From Lentzea pudingi (GTDB taxonomy: Bacteria; Actinomycetota; Actinomycetes; Mycobacteriales; Pseudonocardiaceae): a stretch of DNA of 64,000 nucleotides. Shown piece by piece: positions 56,966 to 64,000 of the stretch. Below the pieces are notes generated by a model, which did no database searches, was not told the DNA's origin, and was given only the letters and a program-made list of their open reading frames with translations. Made by a program: the position numbers and the translations under genes. Where the stretch lies: positions 1-64,000 of the forward strand of contig NZ_BMNC01000012.1 in assembly GCF_014646255.1 (NCBI RefSeq). The letters run 5' to 3'. The first letter of the stretch is position 1, and each line of letters starts with the position of its first letter.

Positions 56966-57453
56966 TTGCTGCAAAAGTCGAGGAGTACGCGTTCGGCGGT
57001 CTGGTCGCGGCGGTCGGGGTCTTCACCCTGGTCGACGCGACCACGATCGCCGGGCGCGACGACAACGTCGTAGGACCACGCGCGTTCCCTTACGCCGTGG
57101 GGATTCTGCTCGTCGTGACGGGCATCGCGGCCATCATCGCGACGGCGCGCGGAAAGCTCGGCCAGGCCGAGGACGCCGAGGACGTCGACGAGAACGTCCG
57201 CACCGACTGGCTCACCGTGGCCAAGCTGGTGGCCGTGCTGGTCGCGCACCTGGTGCTGATCGACGTGATCGGCTGGCCGGTGGCGGCAGCGCTGCTGTTC
57301 TTCGGCGCGGCCTGGACGCTGGGCGCGACCTGGTGGCGGGCGCTGCCGATCGCGGTGGTGCTGGCGCTGGTCGTGCAGGTGGTGTTCGCGTACGGCCTGG
57401 GCCTGTCGCTGCCCGCCGGGATCTTCGAAGGGGTGCCGTTCCTCGATGGATAG
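56962..57453 (+). CDS. tctB: Tripartite tricarboxylate transporter small membrane subunit TctB
   Basis: 163 residues from GTG 56962, overlapping the tctC stop. Four helices in the TctB arrangement with the conserved [19 protein letters not shown] early and a central acidic loop ([14 protein letters not shown]). It forms the membrane complex with TctA. It overlaps tctA by 8 bases. Confidence 0.9.
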
Positions 57454-58942
57454 CATCACCATGCTGATGGAGGGCTTCGCGACGGCCGCGCAGCCCGAAT
57501 ACCTGCTGTACGCGCTGCTGGGCGTCACGCTCGGCACTGCCGTCGGTGTGCTGCCGGGCATCGGACCGGCGATGACGGTGGCGTTGCTGCTGCCGCTGAC
57601 CTACACGCTGGAACCGACCGCGGCGCTGATCATCTTCGCCGGCATCTACTACGGCGGCATGTACGGCGGCTCGACGACGTCGATCCTGCTGAACACACCG
57701 GGCGAGTCCGCGTCCATCGTCACCGCCTTAGAGGGCAACAAGATGGCCAAGGCGGGGCGCGGTGCCGCCGCGCTCGCGACGGCGGCCATCGGCTCGTTCG
57801 TGGCGGGCACGATCGCCACGGTGCTGCTCACGCTCCTGGCGCCGGCCATCGCGGACGTCGCGGTCAAGCTCGGCCCCGCCGACTACGTGGCGCTGATGGT
57901 GGTGGCGTTCACGACGGTCGCCGCGTTGCTCGGGTCCTCCCCCGTGCGCGGCCTGGCGTCGCTGGGGCTCGGCCTGTTCATCGGGCTCGTCGGCACCGAC
58001 ACGCTGACCGGCCAGCAACGGTTCACGCTCGGCATCACGACGATGGCCGACGGCATCGACGTCGTCGTGGTCGCGGTCGGCGTGTTCGCGGTCGGCGAGG
58101 CGCTGTACGTGGCGTCGCGGCTGCGGCACGGGCCGATCGAGGTCATCCCCGTGGGCGGCAGGTGGATGACGGGCGAGTTCTGGAAGCGCTCGTGGAAGCC
58201 GTGGCTGCGCGGCACGTTCATCGGCTTCCCGATCGGCACCGTGCCGGCCGGTGGCGCGGACGTGTCGACGTTCCTGTCGTACGCGGCGGAGAAGAAGCTC
58301 TCGAAGCGGCCCGAGGAGTTCGGCAAGGGCGCGATCGAGGGCGTGGCGGGTCCGGAGGCGGCCAACAACGCCGCCGCGGCAGGCGTTCTCGTGCCGTTGC
58401 TGACTCTCGGGCTCCCCACCACGGCCACCGCGGCGGTGATCGTGGCGGCGTTCCAGAGCTACGGCATCCAGCCGGGTCCGTTGCTGTTCACCAACAACGG
58501 CCCGATGGTGTGGGCGCTGATCGCGTCGCTCTACATCGGCAACGTGATGCTGCTGGTGCTGAACCTGCCGCTGGTGAAGATCTGGGTGAAGGTGCTGCAG
58601 ATCCCGCGGCCGTACCTCTACGCGGGCATCCTGCTGTTCGCGGCGCTGGGCACCTACGCGGTGAACTTCGTCGTGGACGACCTGATCGTGCTGCTGATCA
58701 TCGGTGTGATCGGTTTCTTCATGCGGCGCCACGGTTATCCGGTCGCGCCGCTGGTCGTCGGCCTGATCCTCGGGCCGATGACGGAGGAGCAGGTCCGGCG
58801 CACGCTGCAGATCAGCGAGGGCGACCTCAGCGCGTTGGTGACGAGCCCGTTCGCGGCGGTCGCCTACAGCGTTCTGGCCGTGTTGCTGGTGGTGGCGGTG
58901 GCGCTTCGGTTGCGCCGCAGGAAGTCCGAAGTGACGGTCTAA
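57446..58942 (+). CDS. tctA: Tripartite tricarboxylate transporter large membrane subunit TctA
   Basis: 498 residues, about twelve helices. The two signature stretches are [20 protein letters not shown] and [18 protein letters not shown] followed by NTPGESAS. A second repeat near 265 has [20 protein letters not shown]. It is the ion-coupled permease that moves the carboxylate. Its stop overlaps that of the convergent TetR gene. Confidence 0.93.
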
Positions 58943-59526
58943 CCGCGCACGGCGGCAAGCGCCTGTTCGTACAGCTCGAACGCATCGGCCTTGCCGCCGT
59001 GACGGACCCACAGTTCCGTCGCGGTGTCGACGCACGCGAACACCGTGGCGATGACGCCCATCGCGCGGGCGTCCGGGATCTCACCGGACTCGATGCCCAT
59101 CCGCTTCTCGATCGCGGGCACGAGCGCCCGCTGCCACCTCAGCCGCTTCTCGAAGTACCGGGAGCGCAGAGGCGGGTTCGCGAAGATCAGCGTGGAGATC
59201 TCCAGCACCCGCTGCGGCGTGTGGTCCGAGGCCGTGAGGATCGTGGTGAACCCGGCCCGCAGAGCGTCCCAAGTGGACGCTGCGGAATCATGCGCCTCGA
59301 CGGTGGCGACGAGCAGGTCGCCCAGCGCCTCCTGGTCACCGCAGACCAGGTCTTCCTTCGTGCCGAAGTAGCGGAACAACGAGCGCTGCGACACACCGGC
59401 CCGTGCGGCGACCTGGGCCATCGTGGTCGCCTCGTAGCCCTGCTCGGCGAACAACGCCAGCGCCGTCTCGACGATCTCGGCGACCACGGCCTGACGCGAC
59501 CGGTCCCACAGCGTCGCCTTCTCCAT
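58939..59526 (-). CDS. TetR-family transcriptional regulator
   Basis: 195 residues from ATG 59526. N-terminal [43 protein letters not shown]. The C-terminal ligand domain has the pattern [20 protein letters not shown] common in mycofactocin/MftR-like and related regulators. It lies 70 bases downstream of an SDR gene on the same strand, which it may control. Confidence 0.9.
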
Positions 59527-59596
59527 GGACCCCACTCTAGAGGCGTGGCTCAGAACGTTGCCGGTGTGTTCGTGGTCAGACGGGTGTGTCGCGGCA

Positions 59597-60388
59597 CTAG
59601 CTCTGTCGCACCATCCGGCCGACCATCCTGGCGCCCATCGCACGCGAGGCGAAATGGCGTCCGGCGAACGCCAGCACCCGGTTCATCCGGCCCGAGATGA
59701 CGCCGACGGGCGTGACCCTCTTGTCCAGCGCGCGCAACGCGGTCGCGACGACCTCGCCGGCGGTCTGCATCCGCGTTCCCCCGGCCATCTCCTCGCTGCC
59801 GGCGACCTCGAAGAACTCGGTGCGCGTCGCGCCGGGTGACAGCACCATGACGCGCAGGCCCGTGCCGCGCGACTCGACCCACAGCCCCTCGGTGAAGCTC
59901 ACCACGAAGGCCTTCGTCGCGCCGTAGACCGACGACCAGGGCGTCGCCTGGTAGGCCGCCATGCTCGCCACGTTCACGAGGAAGCCGTGTCCCTTGGCGC
60001 GCAACGGTTCGATGAACGCCCTGCTGATCTCGACCACGGCGTTGACGTCGACCGCTACCTCTTGCCGCAGCCGCTCGGGCTCCTCCTCGTGGAACGCGCC
60101 GAAGTTCGCGAACCCGGCGTTGTTCACGACACTGGTGACGCCGAACTCGGCGACCTCCGCCGCCAGCCTCTCTCCGACGCCCGGCTGGGCCAAGTCCGCG
60201 GCCACGACGTGCACGGTCACGCCGTGCGCGACCCGCAGTTCCCCGGCCAGCTCCTCCAGCCGGTCCTTGCGGCGCGCGACCAGCACCAGGCCCGATCCGC
60301 GCGCCGCCAACCGCCGCGCGAACTCCGCGCCGATGCCCGAACTGGCGCCGGTGACCAGCACCATCTGCTTCCCGAAGTCGACTCCCAT
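59597..60388 (-). CDS. Short-chain dehydrogenase/reductase
   Basis: 263 residues from ATG 60388. Cofactor motif TGASSGIG (about 12-19), VNNAGFANFG and the catalytic YGATK (Ser-Tyr-Lys set with VNVASMA before it) are intact. Arg residues after the second strand (ARRKDR) suggest NADP preference. The C-terminal extension with RALDKRVTPVGVISGRMNRV matches the DltE-like classical SDRs found beside TetR regulators. Substrate unknown. Confidence 0.9.
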   Translation of the reverse strand: MGVDFGKQMVLVTGASSGIGAEFARRLAARGSGLVLVARRKDRLEELAGELRVAHGVTVHVVAADLAQPGVGERLAAEVAEFGVTSVVNNAGFANFGAFHEEEPERLRQEVAVDVNAVVEISRAFIEPLRAKGHGFLVNVASMAAYQATPWSSVYGATKAFVVSFTEGLWVESRGTGLRVMVLSPGATRTEFFEVAGSEEMAGGTRMQTAGEVVATALRALDKRVTPVGVISGRMNRVLAFAGRHFASRAMGARMVGRMVRQS

Positions 60389-60462: not shown

Positions 60463-60479
60463 TTCTGCTCCTAGCAGAA
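60463..60479. promoter_or_regulatory. Putative PopR operator upstream of its own gene
   Basis: TTCTGCTCCTAGCAGAA: perfect 7-bp arms around CCT, equivalent to TCTGC-N5-GCAGA. It lies 41 bases before the regulator ATG. The same core recurs upstream of the clpP pair, and it resembles the TCTGCC-N3-GGCAGA site I recall for Streptomyces PopR. Confidence 0.65.
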
Positions 60480-60519: not shown

Positions 60520-60867
60520 ATGGCGGAGATCCTGGACTTCAAGCGCACTCCGGAACCCCTGTGGCGGGAAGCCCTGGGTCGCAAGCTGCGCGAGACGCGG
60601 GAGGAGCGCGGCGATCGGCTGGTCGACGTGGCCGACCGGGCGGGCATCTCGGTGCAGTACCTGTCCGAGATCGAACGCGGCCGCAAGGAGCCGTCGAGCG
60701 AGATGATCGCGGCGGTCGCCGGTGCGCTGGGCATCGACCTGGCCGACCTGCTGGTCGGGGTCGCCGGCCAGGTCCGCCACCTCCGCGTCCAGCAGGTCAG
60801 CCACTTCCACACCTCGCGCCCGACGGGTCGTCCGTCCGGTCCCGTGGCCATGGCCTTCGCCGCTTAG
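60520..60867 (+). CDS. popR: PopR/ClgR-like XRE regulator of the adjacent clpP genes
   Basis: 115 residues. The XRE HTH spans about 15-75 (WREALGRKLRETREERGDRL, VADRAGISVQYLSEIERGRK, EPSSEMIAAVAGALGIDLAD). After it comes a short tail ending VAMAFAA. A C-terminal Ala-Ala is the degradation signal by which PopR and ClgR of actinomycetes are turned over by Clp proteases. The stop overlaps the convergent clpP stop by 4 bp. It probably represses the two clpP genes and itself through the shared palindrome, and is relieved of repression when it is stabilised or degraded. Confidence 0.8.
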   Translation: MAEILDFKRTPEPLWREALGRKLRETREERGDRLVDVADRAGISVQYLSEIERGRKEPSSEMIAAVAGALGIDLADLLVGVAGQVRHLRVQQVSHFHTSRPTGRPSGPVAMAFAA

Positions 60868-61454
60868 GCGCGCTGGTCCAGCACCTGGTCCACGAGTCCG
60901 TACTCGACGGCGCCCGGTGCGTCGAACACGCGGTCCCGGTCGGTGTCGTGGCGCAGTTCGGCCACGGTCCGGCCGGTGTGCCGGGCCAGGATCGCCTCCA
61001 GCTGCGTGCGCACCCGCACCACCTCGTCCGCCGCGAGGATGAGGTCCGGGATCGTGCCGCGTCCCTGCGCCGCGGGCTGGTGCAGCACGACGCGGGAGTG
61101 CGGCAGCACGGACCGGCGTCCCTCCGCGCCCGCGGCCAGCAGCACGGCACCCGCCGCCACCGCCTGCCCCACGCACGTCGTGGCGACCGGGGCCTTGATG
61201 TAGCGCATGGTGTCGTAGAGCGCGAGCATCGCGGACGGGTCGCCGCCCTCGCAGTTGATGTAGAGGTTGATCTCCAGGTCCGGGTTGTCGGCCTCGAGGT
61301 GGAACAGTTGCGCGATCAGCGCGTTGGCGACGCCGGAGTCGATCCCGGTGCCCAGGTAGACGATCCGCTCGGACAGCAGGTGCGAGTAGACGTCCATGAC
61401 CCGCTCGCCACGGGCGTCCCTCGTGATGACGTTGGGAATGGTGTAGGTGCTCAT
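60864..61454 (-). CDS. ClpP-like subunit with Ala in place of the catalytic Ser
   Basis: 196 residues from ATG 61454. The fold is clearly ClpP: INLYINCEGGDPSAMLALYD, LPHSRVVLHQP with His 125, and EYGLVDQVL carrying the third-triad Asp. The nucleophile segment, normally GQAASMGA, reads GQAVAAGA, with Ala 100 at the Ser position (codon GCG). The Ser-to-His spacing of 25 is kept. It should be proteolytically dead alone, comparable to ClpR subunits of cyanobacteria and plastids, and presumably assembles with the active ClpP encoded directly upstream (4-bp overlap). Confidence 0.88.
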   Translation of the reverse strand: MSTYTIPNVITRDARGERVMDVYSHLLSERIVYLGTGIDSGVANALIAQLFHLEADNPDLEINLYINCEGGDPSAMLALYDTMRYIKAPVATTCVGQAVAAGAVLLAAGAEGRRSVLPHSRVVLHQPAAQGRGTIPDLILAADEVVRVRTQLEAILARHTGRTVAELRHDTDRDRVFDAPGAVEYGLVDQVLDQRA

Positions 61455-62065
61455 GCGACGGCTCCCGAGTGCAGTCCCAGCTTGTGCATGCGGACGGGGA
61501 CGACCTGCCCGAGGTCGGTGACGACGTGGTCGATGAACCCGTACTCGCGGGCCTGCTCGGTGGTGAACCACCTGTCGTGCAACGAGTCCGTGAAGATCCG
61601 GTCGAACGGCTGCCCGGTGTCCTGCGCGATCAGGCCGAGCACGGTGTCCCTGGTGTGGCGCAGGTCGTCCGCCTGCACCTCCACCTCGACGGCACTGCCA
61701 CCGATGCCCGCACTCCCCTGGTGCATCAGGATCCGCGCGTGCGGCAACGCGAACCGCTTGCCCGGCGTACCCGCCGACAGCAGGAACTGCCCGGCGCTGC
61801 AGGCGAGTCCGAGCGCAAGCGTCGCCACGTCGCACGGCACGAGCCGCATCACGTCGCGGATGGCCAGCATCGAGGGCACCGACCCACCCGGCGAGTTGAT
61901 CCACAGGGCGATGTCCTGCCGCGGGTCCTCACTCGCCAGCGACAGCATCTGGGTCGCCAGCACCGTGCCGTTGTCGTCGTCGAGCGCGCCGTCGAGAATC
62001 AGCACCCGCTGACCGAAGAACCGTTCTCGCAGCCCTGGGCTGAAGAGCTTCTCGCTGTTCGTCAT
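61451..62065 (-). CDS. clpP: ATP-dependent Clp protease proteolytic subunit (active)
   Basis: 204 residues. Triad: Ser 90 in GLACSAGQF, His 115 in ILMHQG, Asp in EYGFIDHV. INSPGGSVPSMLAIRD and TGQPFDRIFTDSLHDRWFT also match the family. First gene of the clpP pair; its stop overlaps the second ATG. Pairing with a PopR-like gene suggests the clpP3-clpP4 type accessory locus rather than the essential clpP1P2 beside clpX. Regulated by the palindrome at 62108-62122. Confidence 0.92.
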   Translation of the reverse strand: MTNSEKLFSPGLRERFFGQRVLILDGALDDDNGTVLATQMLSLASEDPRQDIALWINSPGGSVPSMLAIRDVMRLVPCDVATLALGLACSAGQFLLSAGTPGKRFALPHARILMHQGSAGIGGSAVEVEVQADDLRHTRDTVLGLIAQDTGQPFDRIFTDSLHDRWFTTEQAREYGFIDHVVTDLGQVVPVRMHKLGLHSGAVA

Positions 62066-62107
62066 GGCACCGACGATGCCGTTCAGCGGACCGGGTCCGC
62101 CGCTTTC

Positions 62108-62122
62108 TCTGCTGTCGGCAGA
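62108..62122. promoter_or_regulatory. Putative PopR operator upstream of the clpP pair
   Basis: TCTGC-TGTCG-GCAGA, 43 bases upstream of the clpP ATG. It has the same core and spacing as the palindrome upstream of the convergent PopR-like gene, supporting common control. Confidence 0.65.
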
Positions 62123-62139: not shown

Positions 62140-62844
62140 TCACACGGCCAGCACGCGCTCATAGGTGGGAGACACCGGCTCGTCGTCATCGTGCCGCACC
62201 ACAACGCCTTGTGCCTCGACCCACGAGTGGAACGTCAACGGATCGCGCGAGTGCCCGAAGCACCAGTCCAGTCCGAGCCCTCGCAAGGCCCCGAGCAGCA
62301 CCGTGGTCAGCGACAGCTCCATGCACGCCACCCGCCCGGGGAACCAGTGGCTCACCGCGTGCACGTCCCGCAACACGGCAGAACCTTCGGGCTCCGTTGC
62401 CGGACAGCGGGCCAGTCTCCGCTTGAGCCGCAGCACGAAGGCGATCGCCCAACTCAACGGCAATCGCAGCAGCACAACGGAAACAAGCAGGCAGGCGGTC
62501 GTCAGCACCCTTCTGCCCAACGGCATCGCCACACTTCGCCACTCGGGCAACGCGATCGGCACCCCACCGGCCCGCCGCGCCAGCCGCAGGAGGTCCCGTT
62601 CGACGAGTTCGGTGACCAGCCGGTCCACATCGGCGCGTAGAACATCGACCTCTACCCTGGGAAAGCGCGATTTCAGCGCTGTCACCGCACTACCGAGGTC
62701 CCCTGAACGCCGGAGCTCGTCGAACACCACCCGCCCCGTGGCGTTGAGCAGGTGCCACTGCCCGGTGTACGTGTTGAGCACGACCATGTCTCCGCGTCCA
62801 CCGGGCCGTACGTGCACGGTGGAAGGGACGACGAAATCAGGCAT
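62140..62844 (-). CDS. PqqD-B2 fusion: lasso-peptide-type leader recognition and protease
   Basis: 234 residues from ATG 62844, preceded by GGAGGTG at ideal distance; a GTG at 62853 falls inside that site. The N-terminal ~90 residues form a PqqD-like RRE that binds precursor leaders (LNTYTGQWHLLNATGRVVFD). After a hydrophobic stretch (110-140) the B2 transglutaminase-like protease follows with Cys 174 (RVACMELSL) and His 206 (FHSWVE). It would excise the leader before macrolactam formation. The ATG lies inside the end of the cyclase gene, so the two are coupled. Confidence 0.85.
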   Translation of the reverse strand: MPDFVVPSTVHVRPGGRGDMVVLNTYTGQWHLLNATGRVVFDELRRSGDLGSAVTALKSRFPRVEVDVLRADVDRLVTELVERDLLRLARRAGGVPIALPEWRSVAMPLGRRVLTTACLLVSVVLLRLPLSWAIAFVLRLKRRLARCPATEPEGSAVLRDVHAVSHWFPGRVACMELSLTTVLLGALRGLGLDWCFGHSRDPLTFHSWVEAQGVVVRHDDDEPVSPTYERVLAV

Positions 62845-64000
62845 CGGAAACACCTCCGGTGAACTCGCGCAACCACAGCTCGATGGCCAGCACCTGGTTC
62901 AACGGAGCCCAGGAGGTCTCCAGCCCCTGCGCCGCCCGGTCCAGCCTCTGCAGGACGCGCTGCGGCTCGATCAAGCCGATCTCCGCGCTCACCGGATTCG
63001 CCATCAACTTCCGCAACGTCCGCAGGTTCCGCCGGATCCCCATGTGCGCGGTGCTCGTGTAGTCGCCCTTCGTGCGGCGGCTCAGCACCACCTGCGGCAC
63101 CAGTCCGGCCAACGCCTTCTGCAGCAGGGGCTTTGACCTCGACGGGTCACAACGCCGCCAGGCCGGCAGGCTCAGGCACACCCGCACCACTTCGGAGTCG
63201 AGATAGGGAGCATGCACATCGATCCCGTACAGCGCACCGGTTTCACGCACGGTCCGTTGGGTGGCACCCACGTAGTCCAGCTGCACCAGCATCGCCCGAT
63301 CGCACGCACTCATCCGGTTGTCCTCCGTCAGCGCCAGCAAGTGGCCGGCAAGCGCCTGACGGGCCTGTGGCGCAAGCCAATCGCACGACGGCGACCCCCA
63401 CGACGTGATATTGCGTTCTTCCCACGAGACGACATCCGTCGAGCCGTGGTGCCGTTCCAGTTGCCGGGCGAACGTTGTCAGACCCTGACGCCGATTGACC
63501 GCCGCCAGCCGTACGGACCTGCGGAACAACGAGAGCGGAGACCGGTGCCGCAACCTCGCCCACGCCGAACAGTGCCGCCACAACGTCACGAGGTCTCCAC
63601 GCTGAGCCAGATCCACGAAGTACCCGAGTGGGGCACCCAGTACCAGGTCACCGCCCTCGCCGACCAGGTGCGTCGCGCCTCCCCCCGTGGCGAGGACGGA
63701 CATCCGGGCCCTGGTGGGCCCCATCGCGAGACCGCTCGGATGCGGCAGGTCGGCCCCGGCAGACCAGTTCTGGTAGGGAAGGTGTTCCCCGGTCGCCTGG
63801 ACGACGCTGTGCCGGAACCTCGGGTCCAGACGTCCGCAGAGTTCGGCGCGCCGCAGGTCGTCCTCGACCGACGCCCCCTCTTGCACATACGTCACAACGG
63901 AAAGCGTGTCGAGCTCGGGCGCGGCGAGAAAGGCCAGCGACGTGGAATCAAGGCCACCGCTGAAGTCCGACGACAATGCGGTGCTGCCCGAGGCACGTGC
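62837..64000 (-). CDS. Asparagine-synthetase-like lasso cyclase (C protein), N-terminus cut by window edge
   Basis: 387 residues are visible; the frame runs open to base 64000, so the glutaminase-like N-terminal domain and start lie outside. The PP-loop SSDFSGGLDSTSLAF begins the synthetase domain, followed by VGEGGDLVLGAP, YGIDVHAPYLDSEVVRVCLS and SRRTKGDYT, where the conserved Arg/Lys pair sits. In lasso and related RiPP pathways it activates an acidic side chain as AMP-ester and forms the macrolactam. No precursor peptide is visible in the window; it should be upstream (beyond the edge). Confidence 0.85.
   Translation of the reverse strand, partial: ARASGSTALSSDFSGGLDSTSLAFLAAPELDTLSVVTYVQEGASVEDDLRRAELCGRLDPRFRHSVVQATGEHLPYQNWSAGADLPHPSGLAMGPTRARMSVLATGGGATHLVGEGGDLVLGAPLGYFVDLAQRGDLVTLWRHCSAWARLRHRSPLSLFRRSVRLAAVNRRQGLTTFARQLERHHGSTDVVSWEERNITSWGSPSCDWLAPQARQALAGHLLALTEDNRMSACDRAMLVQLDYVGATQRTVRETGALYGIDVHAPYLDSEVVRVCLSLPAWRRCDPSRSKPLLQKALAGLVPQVVLSRRTKGDYTSTAHMGIRRNLRTLRKLMANPVSAEIGLIEPQRVLQRLDRAAQGLETSWAPLNQVLAIELWLREFTGGVSDA

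What the first reader, a model, noticed from the sequence alone, without database searches (positions are those of the whole stretch)
60864..62065. ClpP pair in which one subunit lacks the catalytic serine
The second gene keeps the ClpP fold, His 125 and the triad Asp but has Ala 100 (GQAVAAGA) where active ClpP has Ser (GQAASMGA). The first gene keeps Ser 90, His 115 and Asp. A dedicated dead/active pair under one operator suggests a hetero-oligomeric Clp with an asymmetric chamber, like ClpR/ClpP of cyanobacteria, but arisen in an actinomycete accessory locus.
Basis: partly seen in the sequence, partly recalled or inferred. Interest (0 to 1): 0.7.

Follow-up and report, generated by a model that had tools for sequence, protein, structure and literature searches.

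The report
Reserve protease with one dead subunit
Many actinomycete bacteria carry a spare protein-shredding machine in which one of the two building blocks has lost its cutting site, apparently several separate times, leaving the other block to do all the cutting.

Summary
In the window's second clpP gene codon 61157-61155 is GCG (Ala100) where active ClpP has Ser; His125 and Asp174 remain. The first gene keeps Ser90/His115/Asp164. It is no sequencing error: Ala is in 24 of 24 same-genus genomes, and 79 of 80 named relatives lack the intact triad.

The locus is not a local invention. It is the ClpP3-ClpP4-PopR reserve Clp module known from Streptomyces: same gene order, convergent PopR-like regulator ending in Ala-Ala, PopR boxes before clpP3 and popR.

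New here: the partner ClpP3 is intact in 188 of 188 pairs, whereas ClpP4 is broken in at least four tree-separated lineages (one a single locus) by different residues, including His to Gly in Streptomyces. ClpP4 keeps the N-terminal loop and docking pocket that ClpP3 lacks or has changed. Best reading: ClpP4 is a non-catalytic ATPase-docking ring; ClpP3 supplies all active sites. No biochemistry was available.

Aside: in 6 of 24 same-genus genomes a lasso-peptide cassette adjoins clpP3.

The parts
61451..62065 (-). clpP3-type gene, catalytic subunit (204 aa; Ser90, His115, Asp164)
   Evidence: PF00574 E 1.8e-52; residues; partner triad intact in 188 of 188 pairs
60864..61454 (-). clpP4-type gene, non-catalytic subunit (196 aa; Ala100, His125, Asp174)
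   Evidence: PF00574 E 2.8e-62; residues; P4 clade; AlphaFold2 model pLDDT 89.9, best PDB matches are M. tuberculosis ClpP1P2 chains, TM about 0.93
61155..61157 (-). codon GCG (Ala100) in place of the catalytic Ser
   Evidence: Ala in 24 of 24 same-genus genomes
61451..61454 (-). ATGA overlap of clpP3 stop and clpP4 start (suggests translational coupling)
   Evidence: sequence
62108..62122 (-). PopR-type box TCTGCC-N3-AGCAGA before clpP3
   Evidence: exact match to TCTGCCNNNRGCAGA; box of the slightly looser form TCTGCYNNNRGCAGA in 24 of 24 same-genus genomes, 22 with 0 and 2 with 1 mismatch, at -57 in 23 and at -54 in one
60520..60867 (+). popR-type XRE regulator (115 aa), convergent; its stop overlaps the clpP4 stop
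   Evidence: HTH_3 E 1.1e-14; a convergent homologue was found at 73 of 80 named loci
60859..60864 (+). last two codons of popR, Ala-Ala, putative ClpP1P2 degron
   Evidence: sequence; AA in 158 of 168 homologue rows, VA in 6
60464..60478 (.). second PopR-type box, before popR (probable autoregulation)
   Evidence: 1 mismatch to the pattern; 22 of 23 same-genus genomes with at most 1 mismatch at about -56
62140..62853 (-). lasso-peptide B protein (PqqD-like plus transglutaminase-like domain), directly upstream; neighbour, not part of the protease
   Evidence: PF05402 and PF13471; the lasso assignment is from domain make-up and order
62837..64000 (-). lasso-peptide cyclase (asparagine-synthase type), continues to 64522 on the contig; neighbour
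   Evidence: PF00733 E 5.1e-26

Best explanation
This is the actinomycete reserve Clp protease ClpP3-ClpP4 with its activator PopR. ClpP4 is a pseudoprotease subunit: it keeps the ClpP fold, axial N-terminal loop and aromatic docking pocket, so it most likely forms the ring to which ClpX/ClpC dock, but cannot cut because its catalytic Ser is Ala. ClpP3 keeps the triad but lacks the N-terminal loop and has a changed pocket, so it most likely supplies all active sites and depends on ClpP4 for substrate delivery. Expression follows PopR: PopR is normally destroyed through its C-terminal Ala-Ala by ClpP1P2; when ClpP1P2 fails, PopR builds up, binds the box before clpP3 (and its own) and switches on the reserve core. 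Shown here: gene content, residues, clade, boxes, Ala-Ala end, recurrent loss. Known from others for Streptomyces: PopR control and the back-up role. Inferred: ring composition, docking side, inactivity of ClpP4 and the switch in this organism.
For: Same order clpP3-clpP4 then convergent HTH gene in named Streptomyces fungicidicus and Tsukamurella records. PopR boxes, agreeing with the S. lividans operator given as TCTGCC-3N-GGCGAATCTGCC-3N-GGCAGA (PMC9775585, section 5 read); TCTGCC-N3-GGCAGA was also the commonest dyad before clpP3 in an unsupervised count (22 of 151 thinned loci). ClpP4 triads: named set 79 of 80 broken, class sample 71 of 106 broken, partner ClpP3 188 of 188 intact. Tree with triad columns removed: P4 clade 99/97; at least 6 changes intact/broken, 5 without Kribbella. 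Docking features: P4 Tyr62-equivalent 178 of 180 and Val at the first N-terminal strand 178 of 180 (Ile in 2); P3 Tyr62 to Trp in 119 of 180, Phe82 to Leu in 145 of 180, no N-terminal strand aligned in 180 of 180. AlphaFold2: N-terminal hairpin in ClpP4 (strands 8-13, 16-21), absent in ClpP3. In S. hawaiiensis ClpP2 S131A has no effect, ClpP1 S113A abolishes activity, and ATPases dock via ClpP2 (PMC9765437, passages).
Against: I found no biochemistry for any ClpP3P4 core. His125 and Asp174 are kept in the window's clade, so part of the site may still matter. 35 of 106 class-sample ClpP4s keep an intact triad, so a dead ClpP4 is not required for the module. Kribbella rubisoli has Ser (TCG). No PopR homologue was found at 7 of 80 named loci, five of them Kribbella, so the module is not always complete; the popR box is weaker outside the genus (47 of 73 named loci, 43 of 100 class loci). 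The ClpP3 pocket is changed, not absent, so docking on ClpP3 is not excluded. The N-terminal gap of ClpP3 rows is partly set by local hit ends; full-length checks rest on the window ORF, the ClpP3 alignment and a ClpP3 model of moderate confidence (pLDDT 76.5).
Confidence: 0.74

Rival explanations
1. ClpP3 and ClpP4 mix within rings, as ClpP and ClpR subunits do in plastids, so the chamber has active and dead sites interspersed in the same ring and graded activity.
For: Dead and active paralogues lie in one overlapping gene pair; the plastid R-ring is described as ClpP1 mixed with ClpR1-4 (PMC7966870 passages).
Against: In actinobacteria the related P1/P2 pairs are described with separate docking and catalytic subunits (passages); ClpP3 and ClpP4 differ at N-loop and pocket, which fits two different ring faces.
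Confidence: 0.12
2. ClpP4 is a regulatory decoy: it joins or displaces subunits of the housekeeping ClpP1P2 core and damps or retargets it, rather than building a ClpP3P4 enzyme.
For: ClpP_ADEP of S. hawaiiensis works by entering ClpP1/ClpP2 complexes (PMC12607617 passages); P4 lies beside P2 in the tree.
Against: clpP4 adjoins an intact clpP3 in 188 of 188 pairs with a partner in view; in S. [quoted passage not shown]
Confidence: 0.07
3. Loss of the ClpP4 triad is neutral (a reading of why, compatible with the best explanation of how): once the docking subunit's serine is dispensable it decays at random, and the dead ring has no function of its own beyond docking.
For: ClpP2 S131A has no effect on ATPase-driven degradation (PMC9765437, passages), so loss would be tolerated; losses hit different triad residues in different lineages.
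Against: Broken states are long conserved within lineages (Gly for His in 16 of 16 f33 ClpP4 genes; Ala, Gly or Asp for Ser in 79 of 80 named loci), and His/Asp are kept in the named set. These do not exclude neutrality.
Confidence: 0.5
4. ClpP4 keeps some activity through a different nucleophile or by completing a neighbouring site.
For: His125 and Asp174 are retained in the window's ClpP4 and in the 80 named loci.
Against: No alternative Ser/Thr/Cys stands at the Ser97 column of the broken-Ser forms (A, G, D, E, W or F instead), and other lineages changed His or Asp.
Confidence: 0.04
5. Sequencing error or decaying pseudogene.
For: None found.
Against: Ala in 24 of 24 same-genus genomes; clpP4 dN/dS median 0.113.
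Confidence: 0.01

Closest known systems
ClpP3-ClpP4-PopR of Streptomyces lividans and relatives (reserve Clp core)
   Same: Second tandem clpP pair besides clpP1P2, convergent PopR-type regulator ending in Ala-Ala, PopR box before clpP3, P4 clade membership
   Different: Streptomyces-type ClpP4 keeps Ser but has Gly for His (15 SGD and 1 SGE among the 16 class-sample f33 genes; named S. fungicidicus also SGD); the window has Ala for Ser. I saw no text stating either change (searches; subscription papers such as Viala 2000 are not held, and figures and supplements were not seen)
ClpP1P2 of Streptomyces and M. tuberculosis
   Same: Heteromeric core; ATPases dock on ClpP2, and in S. hawaiiensis ClpP1 does the cutting; N-loop proline and aromatic patch on the docking subunit (PMC9765437, PMC4416901, passages)
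   Different: Both ClpP1 and ClpP2 keep intact triads (41 of 41 P1 rows; 41 of 42 P2 rows, the other an alignment gap, where the window genome's own pair is counted three times)
ClpR of cyanobacteria, plastids and apicoplasts
   Same: ClpP homologue without a working triad, partner of active ClpP (PMC7966870 passages)
   Different: P4 branches with actinobacterial P2 and is nested among intact P4s, so its inactivation looks separate; ClpR itself was not put in the tree
ClpP_ADEP of S. hawaiiensis (self-resistance ClpP near the ADEP cluster)
   Same: ClpP gene near a natural-product cluster
   Different: ClpP_ADEP is described as most like ClpP1 and catalytically competent with ClpP2 (PMC12607617 passages); here a dead P4-clade subunit paired with ClpP3, present in 24 of 24 same-genus genomes while the lasso cluster adjoins it in only 6 of 24

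Membership tests
ClpP3-ClpP4-PopR reserve module | second tandem clpP pair in addition to clpP1P2 | tested here: met
   4 ClpP genes in the genome, pairs on C12 and C23
ClpP3-ClpP4-PopR reserve module | PopR-type HTH regulator next to clpP4, C-terminal Ala-Ala | tested here: met
   window 60520-60867, ends AMAFAA; AA in 158 of 168 rows (L165 and L184 among the other rows look like chance hits, and a few loci are counted twice)
ClpP3-ClpP4-PopR reserve module | PopR box before clpP3 | tested here: met
   62108-62122; 80 of 80 named loci with at most 2 mismatches against 23 of 800 control stretches
ClpP3-ClpP4-PopR reserve module | subunits in the ClpP3 and ClpP4 clades | tested here: met
   P4 clade 99/97, 0.965; window clpP3 with P3 rows
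ClpP3-ClpP4-PopR reserve module | expressed only when ClpP1P2 fails, PopR degraded by ClpP1P2 | not testable with these tools
   known for Streptomyces from PMC9765437 and PMC12607617 passages
Active ClpP peptidase (for ClpP4) | Ser-His-Asp triad | tested here: not met
   Ala100-His125-Asp174
Active ClpP peptidase (for ClpP3) | Ser-His-Asp triad | tested here: met
   Ser90-His115-Asp164
ClpR (cyanobacterial/plastid) | ClpP homologue lacking the working triad | tested here: met
ClpR (cyanobacterial/plastid) | descent from the ClpR lineage | not tested
   no ClpR in the tree; the P2/P4 actinobacterial clade excludes E. coli ClpP at 100/97
ClpP_ADEP-type self-resistance ClpP | dedicated to the neighbouring natural-product cluster | tested here: not met
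   pair present in 24 of 24 same-genus genomes, lasso cassette adjacent in 6 of 24

The most novel reading that the evidence does not exclude
Actinomycetes have repeatedly removed the active site from one ring of their reserve Clp protease because a catalytic serine in the ATPase-docking ring is a liability when ClpP1P2 is poisoned by Clp-directed natural products; the result is a half-armed, hard-to-poison back-up core. In the window's genus a lasso-peptide cassette has settled directly upstream of it, so that read-through could co-express the back-up with the peptide.
Probability: 0.12. Interest if true: 0.8.

Novelty: new variant of a known kind. Interest (0 to 1): 0.52.

Why it matters
How ClpP3 and ClpP4 share the work is open as far as I could find, and the dead subunit makes it directly testable: in the window's clade the wild-type protein is already the serine-to-alanine mutant one would build. 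At least four separate breakages of the same subunit, and none of its partner in 188 pairs, point to a strong asymmetry in how actinobacterial Clp cores work. It also bears on Clp as an antibiotic target, because this reserve core could rescue cells whose ClpP1P2 is blocked (a review states that beta-lactones are lethal to S. coelicolor strains lacking clpP3 and clpP4; PMC9775585).

Tried and rejected
Sequencing error and pseudogene: rejected. Lineage-specific accessory locus: rejected. Dedicated self-resistance gene of the lasso cluster: not supported, because the pair is in 24 of 24 same-genus genomes while the cassette is next to it in 6 of 24; two further cyclase homologues (52% and 63% identical, G017 and G023) lie inside other contigs. 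The six precursor cores are Gly-rich, five of them Gly/Ser-rich, and unlike the lassomycin core as I recall it (lassomycin sequence recalled, not looked up). A ClpP3 change at the Arg170-equivalent (His in 101 of 109 partners of AHD, GHD and DHD ClpP4s, Arg in 35 of 36 partners of intact ClpP4s) tracks the window's clade and may be one event, so I draw nothing from it. A first regular-expression reading of the Ser motif was unreliable and was replaced by alignment columns. In one search nine genes were dropped, eight because joined hit ends crossed a stop and one a 45-aa fragment; using the best single hit instead left only that fragment (L018) out. The motif missed one row (L123). Promoter and terminator scan: no sigma-70-type match; one + strand terminator-like site at 62086-62100, about the number expected by chance. 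The control for the boxes within the genus is poor: 26 of 240 random stretches also held a box with at most 2 mismatches, probably because those loci are short and the stretches overlap the real boxes (not checked). Limits: class-sample loci were picked by similarity to the window's ClpP4 and the match list was cut, so 71 of 106 is not a census; named and class sets may share some species; nine of the 189 P4-clade genes scored best against P2 and were placed by the tree.

Full report
Observation. On the minus strand of the window, 61451-62065 encodes a 204-aa ClpP with Ser90, His115 and Asp164, and 60864-61454 encodes a 196-aa ClpP with Ala100, His125 and Asp174; the Ala codon is GCG at 61157-61155. 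Stop and start overlap as ATGA. Both match PF00574. The same genome has a separate clpP1P2 pair on contig C23.

Is it real? All 24 genomes of the genus searched carry the gene (in G012 it is split by a contig end) and all 24 have Ala at this position (GCG 22, GCC 2). The genus is very probably Lentzea: the six nearest named records are Lentzea (93-99% identical), and contigs of same-genus handles have the lengths of those records (for example 301463 for L. cavernae). Both genes are under purifying selection. Of 80 named relatives brought by the genome scan (Lentzea, Amycolatopsis, Saccharopolyspora, Rhodococcus, Nocardia, Kribbella, Microbacterium, Glycomyces and others, the best 80 of a capped list) the second gene has Ala in 71, Gly in 7, Asp in 1 and Ser in 1 (Kribbella rubisoli), with His and Asp kept in all 80.

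What the locus is. Directly downstream and convergent lies an XRE-type regulator (60520-60867) whose last two residues are Ala-Ala. A homologue was found, always convergent, at 73 of the 80 named loci; of the seven misses five are Kribbella, one locus ends just after clpP4 (L058) and one is L062. Over all rows it ends in AA in 158 of 168 (VA 6), with a few loci counted twice and two likely chance hits (L165, L184). The palindrome TCTGCC-N3-AGCAGA starts 57 bp before the clpP3 start; a one-mismatch copy starts 56 bp before popR. In the 64-kb window these two places give 4 strand matches against 0.65 expected (1 of 100 shuffles reached 4). In the genus the clpP3 box is kept in 24 of 24 (22 perfect, 2 with one mismatch) and the popR box in 22 of 23 with at most one mismatch. 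In the 80 named loci 80 have a clpP3 box with at most two mismatches, against 23 of 800 control stretches, and 47 of 73 a popR box, against 29 of 730. In the class sample it is weaker: 111 of 121 before clpP3, against 114 of 1210 controls, and 43 of 100 before popR, against 114 of 1000 (some of these loci are clpP1P2 pairs). The review PMC9775585 (section 5 read) gives the S. lividans PopR operator as TCTGCC-3N-GGCGAATCTGCC-3N-GGCAGA. Streptomyces fungicidicus and Tsukamurella tyrosinosolvens records show the same order clpP3, clpP4, convergent HTH gene. This is therefore the ClpP3-ClpP4-PopR module.

The dead subunit is a recurrent trait. I collected further second pairs from a class-wide search (394 genomes; regions). 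In a FastTree placement with the triad columns removed, 189 ClpP4 genes form one group (0.965). Their triads: class sample 106: SHD 35, AHD 21, SGD 15, GHD 7, EHN 6, EHH 5, SHN 4, WHT 3, GHE 2, SHS 2, and SHH, WHD, AQD, SDD, SGE, FHN one each; named 80: AHD 71, GHD 7, DHD 1, SHD 1; window AHD; two plasmid records, SGD and AHD. The partner ClpP3 has SHD in 188 of 188 pairs (the remaining one, L270, has no partner in view). The 16 class-sample genes of group f33 all have Gly for the catalytic His; f33 is very probably Streptomyces, since its ClpP4 is 89.8% identical to that of S. fungicidicus, which shows the same change. In the careful tree (86 rows, triad columns removed) the P4 clade has support 99/97 and lies beside the P2 rows (94/70). 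The fewest changes between intact and broken is 6, or 5 without Kribbella. Read from an intact root these are: loss of Asp in the f34 group and its neighbour (99/99), loss of His in f33 (100/100), loss of His in one locus (L214), and loss of Ser in the 35-row clade that holds the window (96/97), either once with a regain in L142/L143/L145 or twice; the last change is the Ser of Kribbella rubisoli. That makes at least four losses, one of them seen in a single locus. The direction is my inference; parsimony counts alone do not give it.

Why the docking reading. In S. hawaiiensis ClpP1P2, ClpP1 S113A abolishes proteolysis, ClpP2 S131A has no effect, and ATPases dock through the ClpP2 pocket (PMC9765437, passages). 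In M. tuberculosis both ATPases need the ClpP2 face, and the N-loop proline and aromatic patch are conserved in ClpP2 and less so in ClpP1 (PMC4416901, passages). ClpP4 keeps these features: Tyr62-equivalent 178 of 180, Phe/Tyr at 82 in 150 of 180, Val or Ile at the first N-terminal strand 180 of 180, and Pro7 invariant in 30 aligned rows. ClpP3 has Trp at 62 in 119 of 180 and Leu at 82 in 145 of 180, and no N-terminal strand (alignment). AlphaFold2 puts a hairpin at residues 8-21 of ClpP4 (pLDDT 89.9) and starts ClpP3 with a helix (pLDDT 76.5). The ClpP4 model matches M. tuberculosis ClpP1P2 chains best (TM about 0.93). So a dead docking ring and an active partner ring is the natural reading; ring composition was not tested.

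Regulation. The known circuit (PopR activates clpP3P4, ClpP1P2 removes PopR, ClpP3P4 is a back-up) is from Streptomyces (PMC9765437 and PMC12607617 passages). The parts for it are present here; the circuit itself was not tested. Five matches to the ClpB_D2-small family are in the genome, one beside clpP1P2 and none on contig C12, so the pair presumably uses the shared ATPases.

Literature. Seven full-text searches of the open-access library for ClpP4, its active site or PopR led to no text I saw that states that ClpP4 lacks a triad residue; of seven papers I saw passages, and of one of them one whole section, but no whole texts, figures or supplements. Subscription papers (Viala 2000, 2002; Gominet 2011) were not found in the library, and specialists may know the Streptomyces change from alignments.

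Lasso neighbour. Upstream on the same strand lie lasso B and C genes and, just outside the window, a 49-codon precursor (C12:64525-64674) with a YxxP leader motif and core GMANGNGDPSGLQSG (the leader motif and Gly1-Asp8 ring are recalled rules). In 6 of 24 same-genus genomes a cyclase of this kind lies next to clpP3P4 on the same strand. The other five cyclases are 44-67% identical to the window's while their ClpP4s are about 98-99% identical. The conserved clpP3 leader starts right after the lasso B gene in those genomes and after other sequence in the rest. In 6 of 9 no-cassette loci compared (two genomes appear twice) a homologue of C12:71056-72015, a protein with a cellulose-binding domain, lies upstream of clpP3 at about 0.1 to 2.5 kb. 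The meaning is open; a neutral insertion site is the simplest view.

Verdict.

Noticed in passing
window 62140-64000 (-), continuing to C12:64674; L258-L262: Lasso-peptide cassette (precursor, cyclase, B protein) adjoins the clpP3 leader on the same strand in 6 of 24 same-genus genomes; cassettes are far more divergent than the flanking ClpP genes, as if swapped at one site.
   Followed up: partly
L065:9998-10582: Kribbella rubisoli ClpP4 has Ser (codon TCG) within a clade of Ala/Gly ClpP4s, a possible regain or a single-strain oddity.
   Followed up: partly
L065, L074, L104, L105, L107: No PopR homologue was found near the pair in the five Kribbella loci, although a clpP3 box with at most two mismatches was.
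   Followed up: no
L161, L162, L177 and other f34/g102 loci: ClpP4 with Glu at the Ser position and Asn or His at the Asp position: two triad residues replaced, in 11 class-sample genes.
   Followed up: partly
window 61577-61579 (clpP3 residue 163) and its homologues: ClpP3 partners of AHD, GHD and DHD ClpP4s have His at the Arg170-equivalent in 101 of 109 cases, while ClpP4 keeps Arg in 162 of 189; could affect ring pairing.
   Followed up: partly
window 57446-58942 (+), 58939-59643 (-): TctA-family transporter gene overlapping by 4 bp the end of a convergent TetR-type regulator gene.
   Followed up: no
L005:6061-8205 (C12:68061-70205, -): NB-ARC plus TPR protein beyond the lasso cassette, shared with G008 (76% identical).
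   Followed up: no
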